Shown here: positions 7,095 through 36,497 of the stretch, piece after piece | Layout of the letters: each line of letters starts with the position of its first letter | Numbering within the stretch: position 1 is the stretch's first letter | NCBI RefSeq assembly: GCF_016812035.1 | Contig: NZ_CP069178.1 | Location: forward strand, 496,001-560,000 | Reading direction: 5' to 3' | DNA: 64,000 nucleotides | Source: Bulleidia sp. zg-1006 | GTDB taxonomy: Bacteria > Bacillota_I > Bacilli_A > Erysipelotrichales > Erysipelotrichaceae | The notes under the pieces: generated by a model | The model's input: the letters and a program-made list of their open reading frames with translations, nothing else | The model's database searches: none | What the model was told of the DNA's origin: nothing | Program-made: the position numbers and the translations under genes

Positions 7095-8056
7095 TGAAGT
7101 GGGGGATTTTAGGCTCAGGGAATATTGCTAAGTGTTTTCTCACAGCAAAGGTCAATGAAGTTGTAGCGATAGCTGGTCGAAACAAAGAAAAATCGTTATC
7201 TTTGCAAAAAGAGTTTTCCATTCCTGTTGTCTATGATAGTTATGGTGAACTGATAAAAAGTGATGTGGATGCGGTGTATATTGCTTTACCACATGGGTTT
7301 CATTATAAATATGCTTTAGAGGCAATGGATGAAGGGAAAGCCGTTCTTATTGAAAAACCAATGGCTTTAAATGAATGGGAAGTGCAATCCCTAATTCTAA
7401 AGGCAAAGGAAAAGAATGTCTTGCTCATGGAAGCTATGAAAACTCGTTATTTTCCGGCTTATCAAGAATTAAAGAAAGCCTTAAAACAAGGTATTATTGG
7501 TGAACTACAATCCATACAAGTCTCTTTTTGTTCACAAGTAGAGACCTCTTTCTTTAAAAAATCTTATCTAAGTGATGCCATTCAAGGTGGAGTGCTTTTG
7601 GATGTGGGTTGTTATGTCTTGAATTATTTGGTGGATTTATTGGGGACCAATATTCCCTTAAAGAAAGTGGATGCTTGCTTTAAAGAAGAGGTGGATGTGG
7701 ACGTGTTAGCTATATTTGAAAGGAGTGGTGTTTCCTTTCAAATGGAACTCAGTCTTGAAAAACCATCTACTCGTTTCGCTATTCTTAAAGGAAATGAAGG
7801 AATGCTTGAAATACCGAATTTCCATCGCCCTAATCATTTCATTTTAAAAAAAGGCAAAGAAGAAAAGGTCTTTGAATACCTTTATGAGGGTAATGATTTA
7901 AGTGCTGAGATAAGAGCTTTTGAAAAAGCTTATGCCCTAGGTCTAAGGGAAGAAGCTTGTATGCCATGGTTAGTCAGCCAACAAATTGCTCATGAATTAG
8001 ACAGGGTGAAGGATGCTTTCACAGCCGATCCAGATGCTTCCGTTTATCGTATGTAA
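7094..8056 (+). CDS. Gfo/Idh/MocA-family NAD(P)-dependent oxidoreductase
   Basis: Cytoplasmic dehydrogenase of the glucose-fructose/inositol dehydrogenase family, substrate unknown. The N-terminal Rossmann motif is GILGSGNIA. The EKPMALN block carries the conserved Lys of the active site, and a C-terminal alpha/beta substrate domain follows. About 320 residues is typical. The ATG overlaps the coaD stop (TGATG), with GAGGAG upstream. It is the last gene of the ftsW operon and a terminator begins in its stop codon. Confidence 0.9.
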   Translation: MKWGILGSGNIAKCFLTAKVNEVVAIAGRNKEKSLSLQKEFSIPVVYDSYGELIKSDVDAVYIALPHGFHYKYALEAMDEGKAVLIEKPMALNEWEVQSLILKAKEKNVLLMEAMKTRYFPAYQELKKALKQGIIGELQSIQVSFCSQVETSFFKKSYLSDAIQGGVLLDVGCYVLNYLVDLLGTNIPLKKVDACFKEEVDVDVLAIFERSGVSFQMELSLEKPSTRFAILKGNEGMLEIPNFHRPNHFILKKGKEEKVFEYLYEGNDLSAEIRAFEKAYALGLREEACMPWLVSQQIAHELDRVKDAFTADPDASVYRM

Positions 8057-8083
8057 ACAGATTTCTAAGGAGGTCTGTTTTTG
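8055..8083 (+). terminator. Terminator of the ftsW-coaD operon
   Basis: Arms AAACAGA (8055-8061) and TCTGTTT (8074-8080) with a T run. The stem begins within the TAA stop codon of the oxidoreductase gene. Confidence 0.7.
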
Positions 8084-8274
8084 TTTGTGGGGAATCGTGA
8101 GTGAATTTTAAAATAAATGAGAAAAGATTGAAAAATGCGATTAGAAGAAATCTATCTCTTGGTCTCATTTTTGTTCTTCCAAAGGTCACTCATGTCTGAT
8201 GAAAAAATATTTAGAAAGTACATATCCACTTAGCATTCTAAAGGTATCTAATAGAATATCCTGCTTCTTTTAAA
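8084..8274. other. Intergenic stretch with no recognised gene
   Basis: AT-rich DNA between the core operon and the IS30-type relic. No ORF with a plausible start, RNA or repeat was recognised here. Confidence 0.5.
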
Positions 8275-8315
8275 GCAAAAATGAAAGAAATTAATCTTAG
8301 ACCTCGTAAATGCTT
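8275..8315 (+). mobile_element. IS30-family transposase relic, left copy of 41-bp repeat
   Basis: This 41-bp segment is identical to 13138-13178. It encodes residues of the type NLRPRKC, the hallmark near the C-terminus of IS30-family transposases (usually RPRKCLNWKTP). Here only the fragment remains, and the sequence diverges right after it at a TATAAT. Confidence 0.7.
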
Positions 8316-8342
8316 TTATAATATCCAGTAATATGGTAAAAT
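8314..8342 (+). promoter_or_regulatory. Predicted promoter of the seven-codon gene
   Basis: An extended -10 (TG-G-TAAAAT, 8334-8342) has a weak -35 TTTTAT 17 bases upstream. A perfect TATAAT also lies at 8317-8322. Start of transcription near 8349 would give a leader of about 19 bases before the small gene. Confidence 0.45.
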
Positions 8343-8367
8343 ATTCACATAAAGGGAAAGGTATACA

Positions 8368-8391
8368 ATGCTGGTTACTTGGGGAAACTAA
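8368..8391 (+). CDS. Seven-residue peptide, candidate RiPP precursor
   Basis: ATG followed by six sense codons and TAA gives MLVTWGN. It has an upstream promoter, an AAAGG Shine-Dalgarno at 8357-8361 (6 bases from the ATG), an in-frame stop just upstream so it cannot be longer, and a 14-bp terminator about 100 bases downstream. It precedes an ABC transporter, a radical SAM/SPASM enzyme and a TIM-barrel protein. Trp is a common target of SPASM-type radical enzymes, so it may be the precursor of a modified peptide. This is inference; the transcript could instead act as an RNA or a leader peptide. Confidence 0.4.
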   Translation: MLVTWGN

Positions 8392-8491
8392 TTTCACAAG
8401 AGTGTGGCTCTTGGAATCTTTAGCTTTCTATTTGGTAGTATATAATTATAATTACAAATCAGATGAGTTATGAGCTTTAGAAATTAGGATG

Positions 8492-8532
8492 ATTATTGGC
8501 AAAGCTTGTTATCAGGCTTTGCCAATAATTTT
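8492..8532 (+). terminator. Strong terminator after the seven-codon gene
   Basis: A perfect 14-bp stem (8492-8505 with 8516-8529), 10-base loop and TTTT. It separates the short gene from the transporter and enzyme genes, so the short transcript would be made in excess and the downstream genes depend on read-through. Confidence 0.8.
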
Positions 8533-8562
8533 AGTGTCCAAACTTAATTGTAGAAAAAATAA

Positions 8563-9297
8563 ATGGTATTAAAAATTATTAAAAATGAGCTAAAAAGAAG
8601 TTTTAAATATAAAGAAAAAATAATATTGAATTATTTTTTTATTATCATAATAGTTTATGCTGAATTTTCTGTTTATACGGGTCTTTTAAAAAATGAAGAG
8701 AGTAATCTGATGTCATATTTGGTGATTGCCAATGTCTTAAATAATTGCTTGCTTACAAATAGACTTCCAAATTTTATACATTTATTAAAAAAGGGAGAAA
8801 TATCCAAATATTATACTTTTCCAAAAGAAATATGGGAAATTATCGTACTTGAAGATATTGCAACTTGTATTGCTGGTTTTGCAGAGAACATATTATTTTT
8901 AATTTTGTTAATGATATTTTTGCAAATTTCATTTTTAAGATGTGCATTTTTTTTGGTATCTATTTTTTTGAGTTTATTGCTGAGTGTATTTGTGGGCGAA
9001 TGCTTCTACTCGTTATCTTTACCGTTAAATAATCACTCTGCTTCCAAAGCACTATTAAACGGTGTTAGTGGTATTTTATCTGGTGGAATCATACCCTTAA
9101 AATATTTGCCACAGCAATTTATAAAGATTTGTTATTTTACTCCATTTGCATTTTTGGTTGATGGACCAGTTCAAGTTTTATTATATGAAAAAAAAGAAAT
9201 TATTATTTTTCAACTAATTTGGTGTAGTGTGCTTGCGCTAATATCATACTATTTGTTTAGGATATTATCTAATAAAACTGAAATATATGGAGGATGA
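8563..9297 (+). CDS. ABC-2 type permease, subunit 1
   Basis: Hydrophobic protein of 244 residues with about six membrane segments, partner of the next permease and ATPase. The paired-permease layout is like DUF990-type (ABC-2) exporters, which move toxic compounds or peptides out. No clear Shine-Dalgarno precedes the ATG. It overlaps the second permease gene. Codon use is very AT-rich (many ATA, AGA and AAA codons) compared with the core genes, which fits acquired DNA. Confidence 0.75.
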   Translation: MVLKIIKNELKRSFKYKEKIILNYFFIIIIVYAEFSVYTGLLKNEESNLMSYLVIANVLNNCLLTNRLPNFIHLLKKGEISKYYTFPKEIWEIIVLEDIATCIAGFAENILFLILLMIFLQISFLRCAFFLVSIFLSLLLSVFVGECFYSLSLPLNNHSASKALLNGVSGILSGGIIPLKYLPQQFIKICYFTPFAFLVDGPVQVLLYEKKEIIIFQLIWCSVLALISYYLFRILSNKTEIYGG

Positions 9298-9299
9298 AA

Positions 9300-10067
9300 A
9301 TGAAAAAAACATTAATGTTGTACCGTGCAAGTCTAACTGGGCAGATAAGTTACAAAAAAAATATGATTCTGGAATTAGTGATTTGGTTTATTTATTCAAT
9401 AATTCCTTTAATTGCTGTCAATTTATTTTTGAAAGGAAGTGTTGCCAGCAATAATAATGTATCTATGCTGGTACATTTTATGTATGGTTCTATTTTGGTT
9501 GCTTATAATTTTGCTAGAATGTTTGCAAGAGGCTTAGATAATTATCAGCAATTATTATTTTCTGGAGATTTAGATATCTATTTTACAAGGCCACTATCGA
9601 TAATATATCAAGTTATAATTTCGGAAATATTTATCAGAAGAATTTCGGGTATCATTGTTGGAATAATATCTATATTAGAAAGCTATAGGCAAGGGTTTGA
9701 GTTATCTATTATAGCTACATTATATTTGATATTAATTTTGGGGATAACTTATATCGGGTTGATGTTAATTGCAGCATCTATATTAACTATAACGACAGAA
9801 GGGACAATGCTAGCTAGTATTTTAGTTGATTCAAGTGCTAATATAGGATTTTATCCAACTACATTATTAAAAAATCCAGCTAAATTTATATATACATTCA
9901 TCGTCCCAATTTATTTTTGTCTATATCTGCCAGTAGATTTGATTAGAAATAGTGATATTGTTTTTTTAGGGTATATATACCCATTTTTCACAATGGTATT
10001 AGTGAATCTAATGGGTATATGTATGTTTAATTATATGTTATTAAAATATCAAAGCAATAATAGGTAA
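9300..10067 (+). CDS. ABC-2 type (DUF990-like) permease, subunit 2
   Basis: About 255 residues with six predicted spans. The block GDLDIYFTRPLS matches the signature that DUF990/ABC-2 permeases show after the second span (G-LD-Y--RPL). Two in-frame ATGs lie at 9294 and 9300; 9300 is preferred because TGGAGG precedes it at 5-6 bases. It is followed after 67 bases by its ATPase. Confidence 0.8.
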   Translation: MKKTLMLYRASLTGQISYKKNMILELVIWFIYSIIPLIAVNLFLKGSVASNNNVSMLVHFMYGSILVAYNFARMFARGLDNYQQLLFSGDLDIYFTRPLSIIYQVIISEIFIRRISGIIVGIISILESYRQGFELSIIATLYLILILGITYIGLMLIAASILTITTEGTMLASILVDSSANIGFYPTTLLKNPAKFIYTFIVPIYFCLYLPVDLIRNSDIVFLGYIYPFFTMVLVNLMGICMFNYMLLKYQSNNR

Positions 10068-10134
10068 AAAGATGTAAAACAAATTTACTAAATATTCAAA
10101 TTTAGAGCTATAGATATTTTGTAATGGAGGAATT

Positions 10135-11037
10135 ATGATAAAACTAGAAAAAATTGTGTTCAACTATAAAGATAAAAAAAGATTATTTAATAATTTAGAT
10201 TTGATAATTAAAGATGGAGAAAGCATTGGAGTTGTGGGTAATAATGGAACAGGGAAGTCGACATTGATTAAATTGATGTTATCTATTTTAAGACCACAGC
10301 AAGGTGATATCTATTTTGGCGATAAAAGTGTTTATAAGTTCAGAAGGAAATTGATGAGTAAAATAGGAGTTGTTTGGGGACAGAGAAGTTCACTTTGGTG
10401 GGACTTATCCATTAGACGAAGTATAGAGATACTTTGTAAAATTTACGATGTCAATCCTGAAAAAATGGTTGAAAATTTAGAATATTATGGTGAAAAAGTT
10501 ACTTTGAAATATTATTGGAATAATTTGCTAAGAAAGGTAAGTTATGGGCAAAGAGTTCAAGCGGACATTATAGCGGTTTTAATAAGAGAACCAAAGTATA
10601 TCTTTTTAGATGAAGCGTTTATAGGGTTGGATTACCACACTAAAGAAACAATAATTGAATTATTATGTGATTATAAACAAACCCATCCGGATTGTATTTT
10701 GGTAATTACATCGCATAATTTTTTAGATATTACAAAATTGTGTGACCGATTACTGATTTTAAGAGAAGATGGTTCTGCCATTGAATATTTAACGAAGAAT
10801 GTATTATCTGTTAAATACACCGAACTTTTGATTGAATTTGATCGAGAAGTTGAACTTTTAGAATCGGAAAATATTGAAATCAATAAAATGAATTCACATA
10901 AGGTTAAAATATTAATTCAAGGTAGAATAAATAATTTTTTGCAGAAAATAAATTGGGACACAGTTTTGTCAATTGATTTAAAAGATAAAACTGTTGATAT
11001 GGTCATAAAAAAAATAGATAAAGGAGATTTACAATGA
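10135..11037 (+). CDS. ABC transporter ATP-binding protein
   Basis: ATPase of 300 residues for the two permeases. Walker A is GNNGTGKST, Q-loop region VWGQRSSLWWDL, signature VSYGQR, Walker B IFLDEAF and switch His in TSHNF. The VWGQRSSLWWDL stretch is typical of ATPases that partner DUF990 permeases. A C-terminal domain of about 80 residues follows the nucleotide-binding fold. GGAGG lies before the ATG, and its end overlaps the radical SAM gene by 4 bases, so export and modification are translationally coupled. Confidence 0.9.
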   Translation: MIKLEKIVFNYKDKKRLFNNLDLIIKDGESIGVVGNNGTGKSTLIKLMLSILRPQQGDIYFGDKSVYKFRRKLMSKIGVVWGQRSSLWWDLSIRRSIEILCKIYDVNPEKMVENLEYYGEKVTLKYYWNNLLRKVSYGQRVQADIIAVLIREPKYIFLDEAFIGLDYHTKETIIELLCDYKQTHPDCILVITSHNFLDITKLCDRLLILREDGSAIEYLTKNVLSVKYTELLIEFDREVELLESENIEINKMNSHKVKILIQGRINNFLQKINWDTVLSIDLKDKTVDMVIKKIDKGDLQ

Positions 11038-12240
11038 GTTTATTTACCTCGGTAAGATTAGAAATCACATCAAAATGCAATTTAAATTGCAAATATTGCC
11101 ATAATTTGGACTTTGCCAACAAAAACAATGATATGACAACGGAAAAAATTAAAGCATTACTTATCTCACTTAAAAAAGAATTAGGAGTTAATAAAGTGCT
11201 TTTGACTGGTGGAGAGCCACTACTTAACAGTGATGTTGTTGAAATTGTGCAACTTTTAACAGACTTAAAAATTAAATCGGATTTAGTTACAAATGGCAAA
11301 TTACTTACTGAAAAGATGATAAATAATCTTTCAAAAGCGGGCTTAAAAAGAATTAGGATAAGTATTGATGGTGTTGGTGATGAACATAATAAATATAGAA
11401 TAGGTAGTAATGTAGAAGAATTGTGGGAAAAGTGTAAATATATTAAAAATAATACTAAAATAAATACTGTTGTTCATACTGTTTCATCTATGCACAATGC
11501 AAACAAAATGTTCGACATATATAAAAAAATTCTTGAGGTTAAGGCGGACAGGTGGCGGATTTTTGATGTTGGATACGAGGGCGCTGCAAATCAAAATATA
11601 AAAGAGCTTGATGTTTCTACATATTATCATGAATTTATGGATCAAATGAGTCGAACACTTAGACACTATATAGAACATAGCCTTATCAATAAATTAGATA
11701 TAGAAGCAAATGGTGTTTTTAAAACAAATCTTTTAACAAAACCACCGATGCTAAATACATATGAAGAAAAAAACAAATATTTCAAAAAGATTTTAAATCT
11801 TTCTCCATGTGCTTATATTCAGCATCAGTCAACTATTAGAAGTGATGGAAAAGGAACACTTTGTCAATTTTTTTCATAATGTACTTTATGACTACCAGAA
11901 ATATAATTTTAATGTGAAAGAAACTTTAAATCATAAAAATTCTTTTGAAGAAAATGAAATACTTCTTAAAGATATCAAGCATTGTGAAAAATGTAAATAT
12001 GTTGTTGTATGCAATTCAGGTTGTAGAGCAAAGGCAAAATATTTGACGGGAAGCGTATACAATCCCGATCCTGTTTTTTGTGTGCTTTTACCTTTATTAT
12101 ACGAAAAAATTGTTCCTATTTTTCCAAATGATTCAAGAGACTCTTTTATTTCTTTTTTAAATCAAGATGGAGAATCTCCATTTTATAATTCAGAAGATCT
12201 TTCGAATTTGATTAAACAGAAAATAGGTAAATCTCTATGA
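11034..12240 (+). pseudogene. Radical SAM/SPASM peptide-modifying enzyme, frameshifted
   Basis: The cluster motif CNLNCKYC (Cys15, Cys19, Cys22) is followed by the GGEPLL and SIDGVG motifs of the radical SAM core. The SPASM domain begins with C-A-Y-I and DGKGTLC, then breaks: a T7 tract at about 11868-11874 puts the stop TAA at 11877. In the +1 frame the same domain continues through CEKCKYVVVCNSGC and DPVFC to 12240. Removing one T restores a 401-residue protein, the normal size of this class. The family makes C-C, thioether and epimer modifications on ribosomal peptides. The interruption could be a phase-variable tract, real decay or a homopolymer sequencing error. Its ATG overlaps the ATPase stop. 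Confidence 0.85.
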
Positions 12241-12959
12241 AATATGGATATGCATTGAAATTAGTTGTGGATGAAAATATAAGAGATGAAATGAATCAAT
12301 ATTTCTCAATGTATGATATTGTTGAAATTAAGGTTAAGAATAAACATTTGGATAATTACATTTTCATAAAACAAATTAACGAATTAATAAAAAAATATAA
12401 TGATAGAATTTCGTTGCATTTAGAAGCTGATTTGATTGAAAACTTTGAGCAAAGAAGTATATATTTTGATTGTATTTTAAAAAAAATAGAAAGAGTAGAT
12501 TTTTTGGTAACACACATTCAAAATAACACAGATGTAAGAGTGATTAACTCTATTTGTGATTTACTTCCAAATAATACAACTATTTTATTGGAAAACGAAA
12601 GTGGAGATGAACAGTTTATTGAAAAAATCAAAAATATAAAGAGTACTATATCAACTTTACATAAAGACAAAGTTAAAATATGTTTTGATTTAGGACATTG
12701 CAAAAAAGAATCTGAAATGCTCAAGACAATTGTAAGTGATAAAAACATGTTAAAAGACGTGGTGGAAATTCATATTCATTCTAATATTCCTAACGAACAT
12801 TCGAGACTGAAGAAAAATGATAAATTAATTTCTGAAATAGTTGGATTTATGAATGTTTGTGAAAATTTAAGAAGAGCGATATTCGAAATAAAAAAGATTG
12901 ATGTATTGAAATATGAAGGTATAGAACAGATAAAATTAATAGATGAAAAATATTCTTGA
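12237..12959 (+). CDS. TIM-barrel protein, sugar isomerase/AP endonuclease 2 fold
   Basis: About 240 residues with the features of the xylose-isomerase-like TIM barrel superfamily: ILLENE, ICFDLGHC, EIHIHSN and FEIK supply the expected Glu, His/Asp, His and Glu metal ligands. Its reaction is unknown. ATGA overlap with the radical SAM gene ties it to that pathway. TIM-barrel proteins act in some RiPP pathways (for example the DUF692 family MbnB), but this protein is not obviously of that family. It is the last gene before the right IS30 relic. Confidence 0.75.
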   Translation: MKYGYALKLVVDENIRDEMNQYFSMYDIVEIKVKNKHLDNYIFIKQINELIKKYNDRISLHLEADLIENFEQRSIYFDCILKKIERVDFLVTHIQNNTDVRVINSICDLLPNNTTILLENESGDEQFIEKIKNIKSTISTLHKDKVKICFDLGHCKKESEMLKTIVSDKNMLKDVVEIHIHSNIPNEHSRLKKNDKLISEIVGFMNVCENLRRAIFEIKKIDVLKYEGIEQIKLIDEKYS

Positions 12960-13042
12960 ATTTTAGGAAGTTGCTGTCATGTTGTGCGTATCTAAATGGA
13001 ATACCATAACAATTGATTTGTGACAAAAAAATATACAAGTTT

Positions 13043-13232
13043 ATGGGTGTTGTAAATTTGGAACTGGAGCGAGCAAAAAATCTTAAAACGATAACCCCAG
13101 ATAGAGGGAAAGGATTTTCTAAGCATACAATGATTAGGCAAAAATGAAAGAAATTAATCTTAGACCTCGTAAATGCTTAAATTGGAAACTCCATATGAGG
13201 TATATCATTCAGTTAAGTTGCAATTGATTTGA
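13043..13232 (+). mobile_element. IS30-family transposase relic, right side
   Basis: Translation gives a piece with KTITPDRGKGFSKHT, matching the ITPDRGKEF motif of the IS30 catalytic domain. In another frame NLRPRKCLNWK follows, then in a third frame TPYEVYHSVKLQL, the usual IS30 C-terminus. At least two frameshifts and an internal deletion make it non-functional. It contains the right copy of the 41-bp repeat (13138-13178). Confidence 0.75.
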
Positions 13233-13307
13233 CAATTCAAGGAGATTTTTAAATTTTTATGGATAAGACCTTATCCATAAGCTTATTATCTAAAGAATAT
13301 TCATTCC

Positions 13308-13958
13308 CTAATCAAATAAGGCAAAGATATTTTGGTAATTGTGGATACAAGCTTTGATATTTGGATGGTGAAGATTTCTTAATTGAGGGGAATCAATCGC
13401 AATCACATCGGCTCCTATTTCTAAGGCGGCTTTAATGCCATGGATAGAATCTTCAAAAACAAGTACTTTATCACTAACCTTTAAATTTTTCATGGCTTGT
13501 TGGTACATTTCTTTCTTATTCGCATAGCTACCATCATCGTAAATAATGCTTTTAGGATCCATCCATTGATCTAAGTGAAAATGCCGAATGTAAAAATCAA
13601 TATTATCCTTGATGGAAGCTGAAGCAATGGTAAAAGGAATATTCTTGTCTTTTAAATAATCCAATAATTCAGGCACACCATCCACTAGTTGAAAAGAAGA
13701 ATCAGCTTCAACATAGGAGCGATATAAAGCTTCTTTTTTCTTTGAAAGATTAGTGTATTCTTCATCACTATAGCGATTTCCCGTTAAGCCCTTTAATAAA
13801 TCAATGTTCGCTAGTCCCCAATACTTTGTTAGAATGGTTTCTAATGTAATAGGACCACAATTTAAGCTTTGTGAGATTGTATCCCAAGCCTTGACATGTA
13901 AATCCGTATCAAATAGTAAAGTTCCATTAAAATCAAAAATCACTGCATTATATTTCAT
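13308..13958 (-). CDS. HAD-superfamily hydrolase, beta-phosphoglucomutase-like
   Basis: Phosphatase or phosphomutase of HAD subfamily IA, 216 residues. Motif I is DFNGTL, with the nucleophile Asp but Asn where most members have the acid/base Asp. Motif II is Ser in TIASAS, and motifs III/IV lie in KVLVFEDSIHGIKAA. AAGGAG lies before the ATG. It is transcribed away from the hrcA operon. The substrate is unknown. Confidence 0.85.
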   Translation of the reverse strand: MKYNAVIFDFNGTLLFDTDLHVKAWDTISQSLNCGPITLETILTKYWGLANIDLLKGLTGNRYSDEEYTNLSKKKEALYRSYVEADSSFQLVDGVPELLDYLKDKNIPFTIASASIKDNIDFYIRHFHLDQWMDPKSIIYDDGSYANKKEMYQQAMKNLKVSDKVLVFEDSIHGIKAALEIGADVIAIDSPQLRNLHHPNIKACIHNYQNIFALFD

Positions 13959-36353: not shown

Positions 36354-36354
36354 C

Positions 36355-36399
36355 AAAAATTAGAGAGGGGGAGAAAGAGTTTCCTCCTCTCTAATTTTT
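36355..36399 (+). terminator. Terminator after the lanthipeptide precursor
   Basis: Perfect 14-bp outer stem (36355-36368 with 36386-36399) with additional inner pairing; ends in a T run. Confidence 0.85.
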
Positions 36400-36497
36400 G
36401 AACGTAATATATTTAACTGATTTCTTGGCGCTTAATGTACATTGTCTAATTAAATTTTTTTTCACTTTATCATAAAATTTTAAAAGGGGTTGATTGT

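What the first reader, a model, noticed from the sequence alone, without database searches (positions are those of the whole stretch)
8368..8391. Seven-codon gene MLVTWGN with full expression signals
The ORF has an extended -10, AAAGG at 6 bases from the ATG, an upstream in-frame stop that fixes its size, and a 14-bp terminator. Such a layout gives a short abundant transcript ahead of the biosynthetic genes, as for RiPP precursors. The single Trp is a plausible radical target.
Basis: partly seen in the sequence, partly recalled or inferred. Interest (0 to 1): 0.7.

Follow-up and report, generated by a model that had tools for sequence, protein, structure and literature searches.

The report
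Unproven seven-codon leader ORF
A seven-codon reading frame does sit at the head of a small, horizontally acquired ABC-exporter/radical-SAM gene set, but nothing available shows that it is translated or conserved or makes a peptide product, and its signals could easily arise by chance in this AT-rich DNA.

Summary
In detail: 8368-8391 reads ATG CTG GTT ACT TGG GGA AAC TAA (MLVTWGN), with AAAGG 6 nt upstream, an in-frame stop at 8350-8352, an extended -10-like site, and an 18-bp hairpin at 8491-8530. Only the hairpin is clearly non-random. The promoter match is not above shuffles, and 11% of shuffled leaders contain a 5-20-codon ATG ORF with an equally good Shine-Dalgarno. Downstream is one apparent operon: two ABC-2 permeases, an ATPase, a radical-SAM/SPASM protein (frameshifted in a T7 run) and an AP_endonuc_2-like TIM barrel. 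The cassette is 27% G+C in a 37% G+C neighbourhood, is bounded by an exact 41-bp repeat, on the right part of an IS30-family transposase remnant, and is replaced by other genes in the nearest relative. The layout resembles microcin C (7-residue M...N precursor, hairpin before the next gene), but the defining MccB enzyme is absent. Most likely: the attenuated leader of a transferred, possibly decaying operon, with an incidental leader ORF. A leaderless heptapeptide RiPP precursor is not excluded (about 17%).

The parts
8275..8315 (.). Left copy of a 41-bp exact direct repeat (shared with the IS30-flanked right end)
   Evidence: only two copies in the genome
8315..8342 (+). Promoter-like site TTTATA-16-TAAAAT with extended -10 TG
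   Evidence: not above shuffle expectation
8350..8352 (+). Upstream in-frame TAA
8357..8361 (+). AAAGG, Shine-Dalgarno-like, 6 nt from the ATG
   Evidence: -8.2 kcal/mol duplex with anti-SD
8368..8391 (+). Seven-codon ORF MLVTWGN plus TAA
   Evidence: no conservation found
8491..8530 (+). 18-bp hairpin, loop of 4, weak U-tract; candidate partial terminator before the operon
   Evidence: single copy in genome
8563..9297 (+). ABC-2 type permease 1 (244 aa), weak SD
9294..10067 (+). ABC-2 type permease 2, PF06182 (257 aa)
10135..11037 (+). ABC ATPase (300 aa)
11034..11879 (+). Radical SAM core (281 aa), ends prematurely just after the T7 run at 11868-11874
11809..12240 (+). SPASM domain in the next frame (TIGR04085), continuation of the radical SAM protein
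12237..12959 (+). AP_endonuc_2-like TIM barrel protein (240 aa), no close relatives found
13138..13178 (.). Right copy of the 41-bp direct repeat
13148..13274 (+). IS30-family transposase 3'-end remnant

Best explanation
The 24-bp ORF lies in the transcribed leader of a horizontally acquired operon (ABC-2 exporter, radical-SAM/SPASM enzyme, TIM-barrel protein) that entered this genome in association with IS30-type elements and may be decaying. Transcription probably starts near 8350, and the 8491-8530 hairpin ends part of it before the permease genes, so the operon runs on read-through. The seven-codon ORF is an incidental or minor leader ORF with no peptide product. Shown: ORF, hairpin, gene content, base composition, flanking repeats, frameshift. 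Inferred: promoter use, read-through, absence of a product.
For: 11% of shuffled leaders give an ORF with as good an SD. Promoter-like matches are at background. The hairpin is far beyond chance and stands 33 nt before the first operon gene, which has a weak SD of its own. Cassette G+C is 0.269 against 0.37 in flanking genes. A 41-bp exact repeat flanks it and occurs only there; the right copy adjoins IS30 sequence. The nearest relative has other genes at this spot. The radical SAM frame is broken. No match to the 7-mer in any other of the 392 genomes searched; one chance match out of frame in a phage gene.
Against: The ORF is first in the leader with a usable SD and precedes a radical SAM enzyme and an exporter, which is how RiPP clusters look. 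Exactly 7 codons ending in Asn is rare by chance (0.15% of shuffles, post hoc). Lack of relatives means lack of conservation is not evidence against function. The frameshift may be a sequencing error in a homopolymer.
Confidence: 0.5

Rival explanations
1. MLVTWGN is a leaderless heptapeptide RiPP precursor, made in excess from a short terminated transcript, modified by the radical-SAM/SPASM enzyme (possibly at Trp5) and the TIM-barrel protein, and exported by the ABC-2 transporter.
For: Position, SD and hairpin match the microcin C layout, where the precursor is 7 residues, starts with Met, ends with Asn, has a strong SD and is followed by a terminator (PMC6495379). Five-residue biarylitide precursors show that tiny leaderless RiPP genes exist (PMC13417212). 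Radical SAM and exporter are present.
Against: No MccB: the only ThiF-family gene in the genome resembles TcdA and lies about 390 kb away. No RRE, P450 or peptidase detected in the cassette. No conservation evidence. Radical SAM frame broken. Signals near chance.
Confidence: 0.17
2. The ORF is a regulatory leader peptide: ribosome stalling on it changes RNA folding and releases the terminator in front of the ABC exporter, as for BmrB-BmrCD.
For: Leader ORF, then hairpin, then ABC transporter genes, as in the BmrB system (PMC4191407).
Against: The 5' arm of the hairpin pairs with the upstream leader no better than with shuffles (63% and 80% of shuffles as good). With the ribosome placed on the ORF the hairpin still forms.
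Confidence: 0.1
3. The real precursor gene of the cluster is a different, damaged or missing frame; the cassette end next to the repeat has lost or shifted it.
For: The cassette begins right at the repeat, 53 bp before the ORF, and the radical SAM gene carries a frameshift. A 46-aa ORF (8333-8473) and an open frame without a usual start codon also span the leader.
Against: The 46-aa ORF has no SD (+0.6 kcal/mol). No relative was found that could show an original frame.
Confidence: 0.13
4. The leader RNA itself is the product (a structured small RNA).
For: 8350-8540 folds with z = -5.2.
Against: The hairpin supplies -25.3 of -58 kcal/mol; no Rfam family in the window.
Confidence: 0.07

Closest known systems
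Microcin C (mccA-mccB) type peptide-nucleotide RiPP clusters (PMC6495379)
   Same: 7-codon first ORF, Met start, Asn end, SD, hairpin before the next gene, exporter in the operon
   Different: No MccB ThiF-type adenylyltransferase; radical SAM and TIM-barrel proteins instead; SD only moderate
Biarylitides (five-residue precursor, P450 cross-linked; PMC13417212)
   Same: Minimal precursor gene with almost no room for a leader
   Different: No P450 detected in the cassette; 7 codons
BmrB leader peptide and BmrCD ABC transporter attenuation (PMC4191407)
   Same: Short ORF and terminator in front of ABC transporter genes
   Different: BmrB is 53 aa with the terminator inside it and predicted anti-terminator structures; none found here
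ABC-2 exporter triads (ATPase plus two permeases, PF06182)
   Same: Homologous ATPase and permeases at about 25-35% identity in relatives
   Different: The relatives read in full run ATPase-permease-permease and lie without radical SAM or TIM-barrel genes; here the order is permease-permease-ATPase

Membership tests
Microcin C-like RiPP | Short precursor, usually 7 aa, Met first and Asn last, with SD | tested here: met
   criteria
Microcin C-like RiPP | MccB (ThiF-family) adenylyltransferase next to the precursor | tested here: not met
Microcin C-like RiPP | Transcription terminator between precursor and biosynthetic genes | tested here: inconclusive
   18-bp hairpin present, weak U-tract; termination not measured
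Radical-SAM RiPP cluster | Radical SAM/SPASM maturase in the operon | tested here: inconclusive
   Domains present but split by a frameshift
Radical-SAM RiPP cluster | Precursor recognition element (RRE/PqqD) in the cluster | tested here: not met
   No such domain in Pfam or NCBIfam scans of the cassette proteins
Radical-SAM RiPP cluster | Precursor conserved next to the maturase in relatives | not testable with these tools
   No relatives found
Ribosome-stalling attenuator leader | Competing anti-terminator structure | tested here: not met
Ribosome-stalling attenuator leader | Translation-dependent read-through | not testable with these tools
   needs reporter fusions

The most novel reading that the evidence does not exclude
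A seven-codon leaderless precursor is modified by a radical-SAM/SPASM enzyme without MccB or P450 chemistry and exported by an ABC-2 transporter, on a cassette moved by IS30: a microcin-C-like layout with radical chemistry.
Probability: 0.12. Interest if true: 0.75.

Novelty: new member of a known kind. Interest (0 to 1): 0.27.

Why it matters
If the 7-mer were a radical-SAM substrate it would be an unusually short leaderless one and would show that annotation misses such genes. As it stands, the solid result is more modest: an orphan, IS30-associated ABC/radical-SAM/TIM-barrel cassette at a variable chromosomal spot, headed by an untested leader.

Tried and rejected
Relatives by protein: TIM barrel in 392 phylum genomes and all 315 genomes held of the order, phages, plasmids, viral contigs; weak hits L024 and L025 lie in unrelated genes. 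Radical SAM: only generic 25-38% hits. The genome-contig scans were weak tests: the first used low-conservation peptides, the second a single narrow motif from an alignment that I padded with artificial sequences to steer motif choice. Permease and ATPase: generic exporters without radical SAM genes in the loci examined. Single-sequence AlphaFold model of the TIM barrel: pLDDT 50, fold search uninformative. The 7-mer pattern hit in a viral contig lies out of frame in a phage portal-like gene. One search used a wrongly spaced hairpin pattern; answers that question instead.

Full report
Observation. The window reads ATGCTGGTTACTTGGGGAAACTAA at 8368-8391. AAAGG ends 6 nt before the ATG, and TAA at 8350-8352 is in frame upstream. 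An extended -10-like site with a poor -35 lies at 8315-8342, but promoter-like matches in 8000-13400 are no more frequent than in shuffles (32 against 38.3). The SD duplex energy of -8.2 kcal/mol is within the range of neighbouring genes. Among 2000 dinucleotide shuffles of 8316-8562, 11% contain an ATG ORF of 5-20 codons with an SD at least this good, 1.2% one of exactly 7 codons and 0.15% one of 7 codons ending in Asn. The last two criteria were chosen after seeing the ORF. The hairpin at 8491-8530 is the one clearly non-random element: 18 pairs, loop of 4, -25.3 kcal/mol, unique in the genome apart from its own other strand. Its T-tract is short, and the terminator scan did not list it.

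Surroundings. After the hairpin come two ABC-2 permeases, an ATPase, a radical SAM core and SPASM domain in different frames, and an AP_endonuc_2-like TIM barrel. The frame break lies at a T7 run, 11868-11874; it may be a pseudogene or a sequencing error. The cassette has 27% G+C against 37% in neighbouring genes. A 41-bp exact repeat at 8275-8315 and 13138-13178 occurs only twice in the genome, and the sequence at 13148-13274 matches IS30-family transposase genes. The nearest relative keeps the neighbours at 71-94% protein identity but has three other genes between them. Together this indicates a horizontally acquired cassette at a variable spot, with IS30 involved; the mode of movement is inferred.

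Conservation. I found none for the TIM barrel in all 315 genomes held of the order, a spread of 392 in the phylum, phages, plasmids or viral contigs. The radical SAM protein gave only generic matches. The two scans of the larger genome collection were insensitive. For the second I built an alignment of the window protein with artificial sequences, only to steer which motifs the tool used; it is not evidence of homology. The pattern for MLVTWGN-like ORFs matched none of the other genomes in a set of 392 and one phage gene out of frame.

Mechanism. The layout fits a leader whose hairpin partly ends transcription before an operon whose first gene has only a weak SD. Whether the 7-mer matters is open. 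Microcin C precursors are 7 residues, start with Met, end with Asn, have a strong SD and are followed by a terminator (PMC6495379), and biarylitide precursors are only five residues (PMC13417212), so a tiny precursor is not absurd. But MccB is missing: the one ThiF-family gene in the genome best matches TcdA and lies about 390 kb away. No RRE was detected. A stalling-leader attenuator like BmrB (PMC4191407) is not supported, since the hairpin arm pairs with the leader no better than with shuffles.

Verdict. Real ORF, real hairpin, chance-level expression signals, no conservation evidence, and a possibly decaying orphan cassette. The RiPP reading remains possible but unsupported.

Noticed in passing
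8275-8315 and 13138-13178: Exact 41-bp direct repeat, found only here in the genome, flanking the low-G+C cassette; the right copy runs into an IS30-family transposase remnant.
   Followed up: partly
11868-11874: T7 run at which the radical SAM/SPASM reading frame is broken: pseudogene or homopolymer sequencing error.
   Followed up: partly
L063:5378-7499: The nearest relative carries three other genes between the same two neighbours (two without NCBIfam matches, the third with a weak MamQ match), so the spot between the GFO/IDH/MocA-family and HAD-family genes is variable.
   Followed up: partly
12237-12959: AP_endonuc_2-like TIM barrel with weak CbiR similarity and no relative in any collection searched.
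   Followed up: yes
8333-8473: Overlapping 46-aa ORF in another frame across the leader, without a Shine-Dalgarno.
   Followed up: partly
36354-36400: Another very strong hairpin (21 pairs, loop of 5) seen in the window-wide scan.
   Followed up: no
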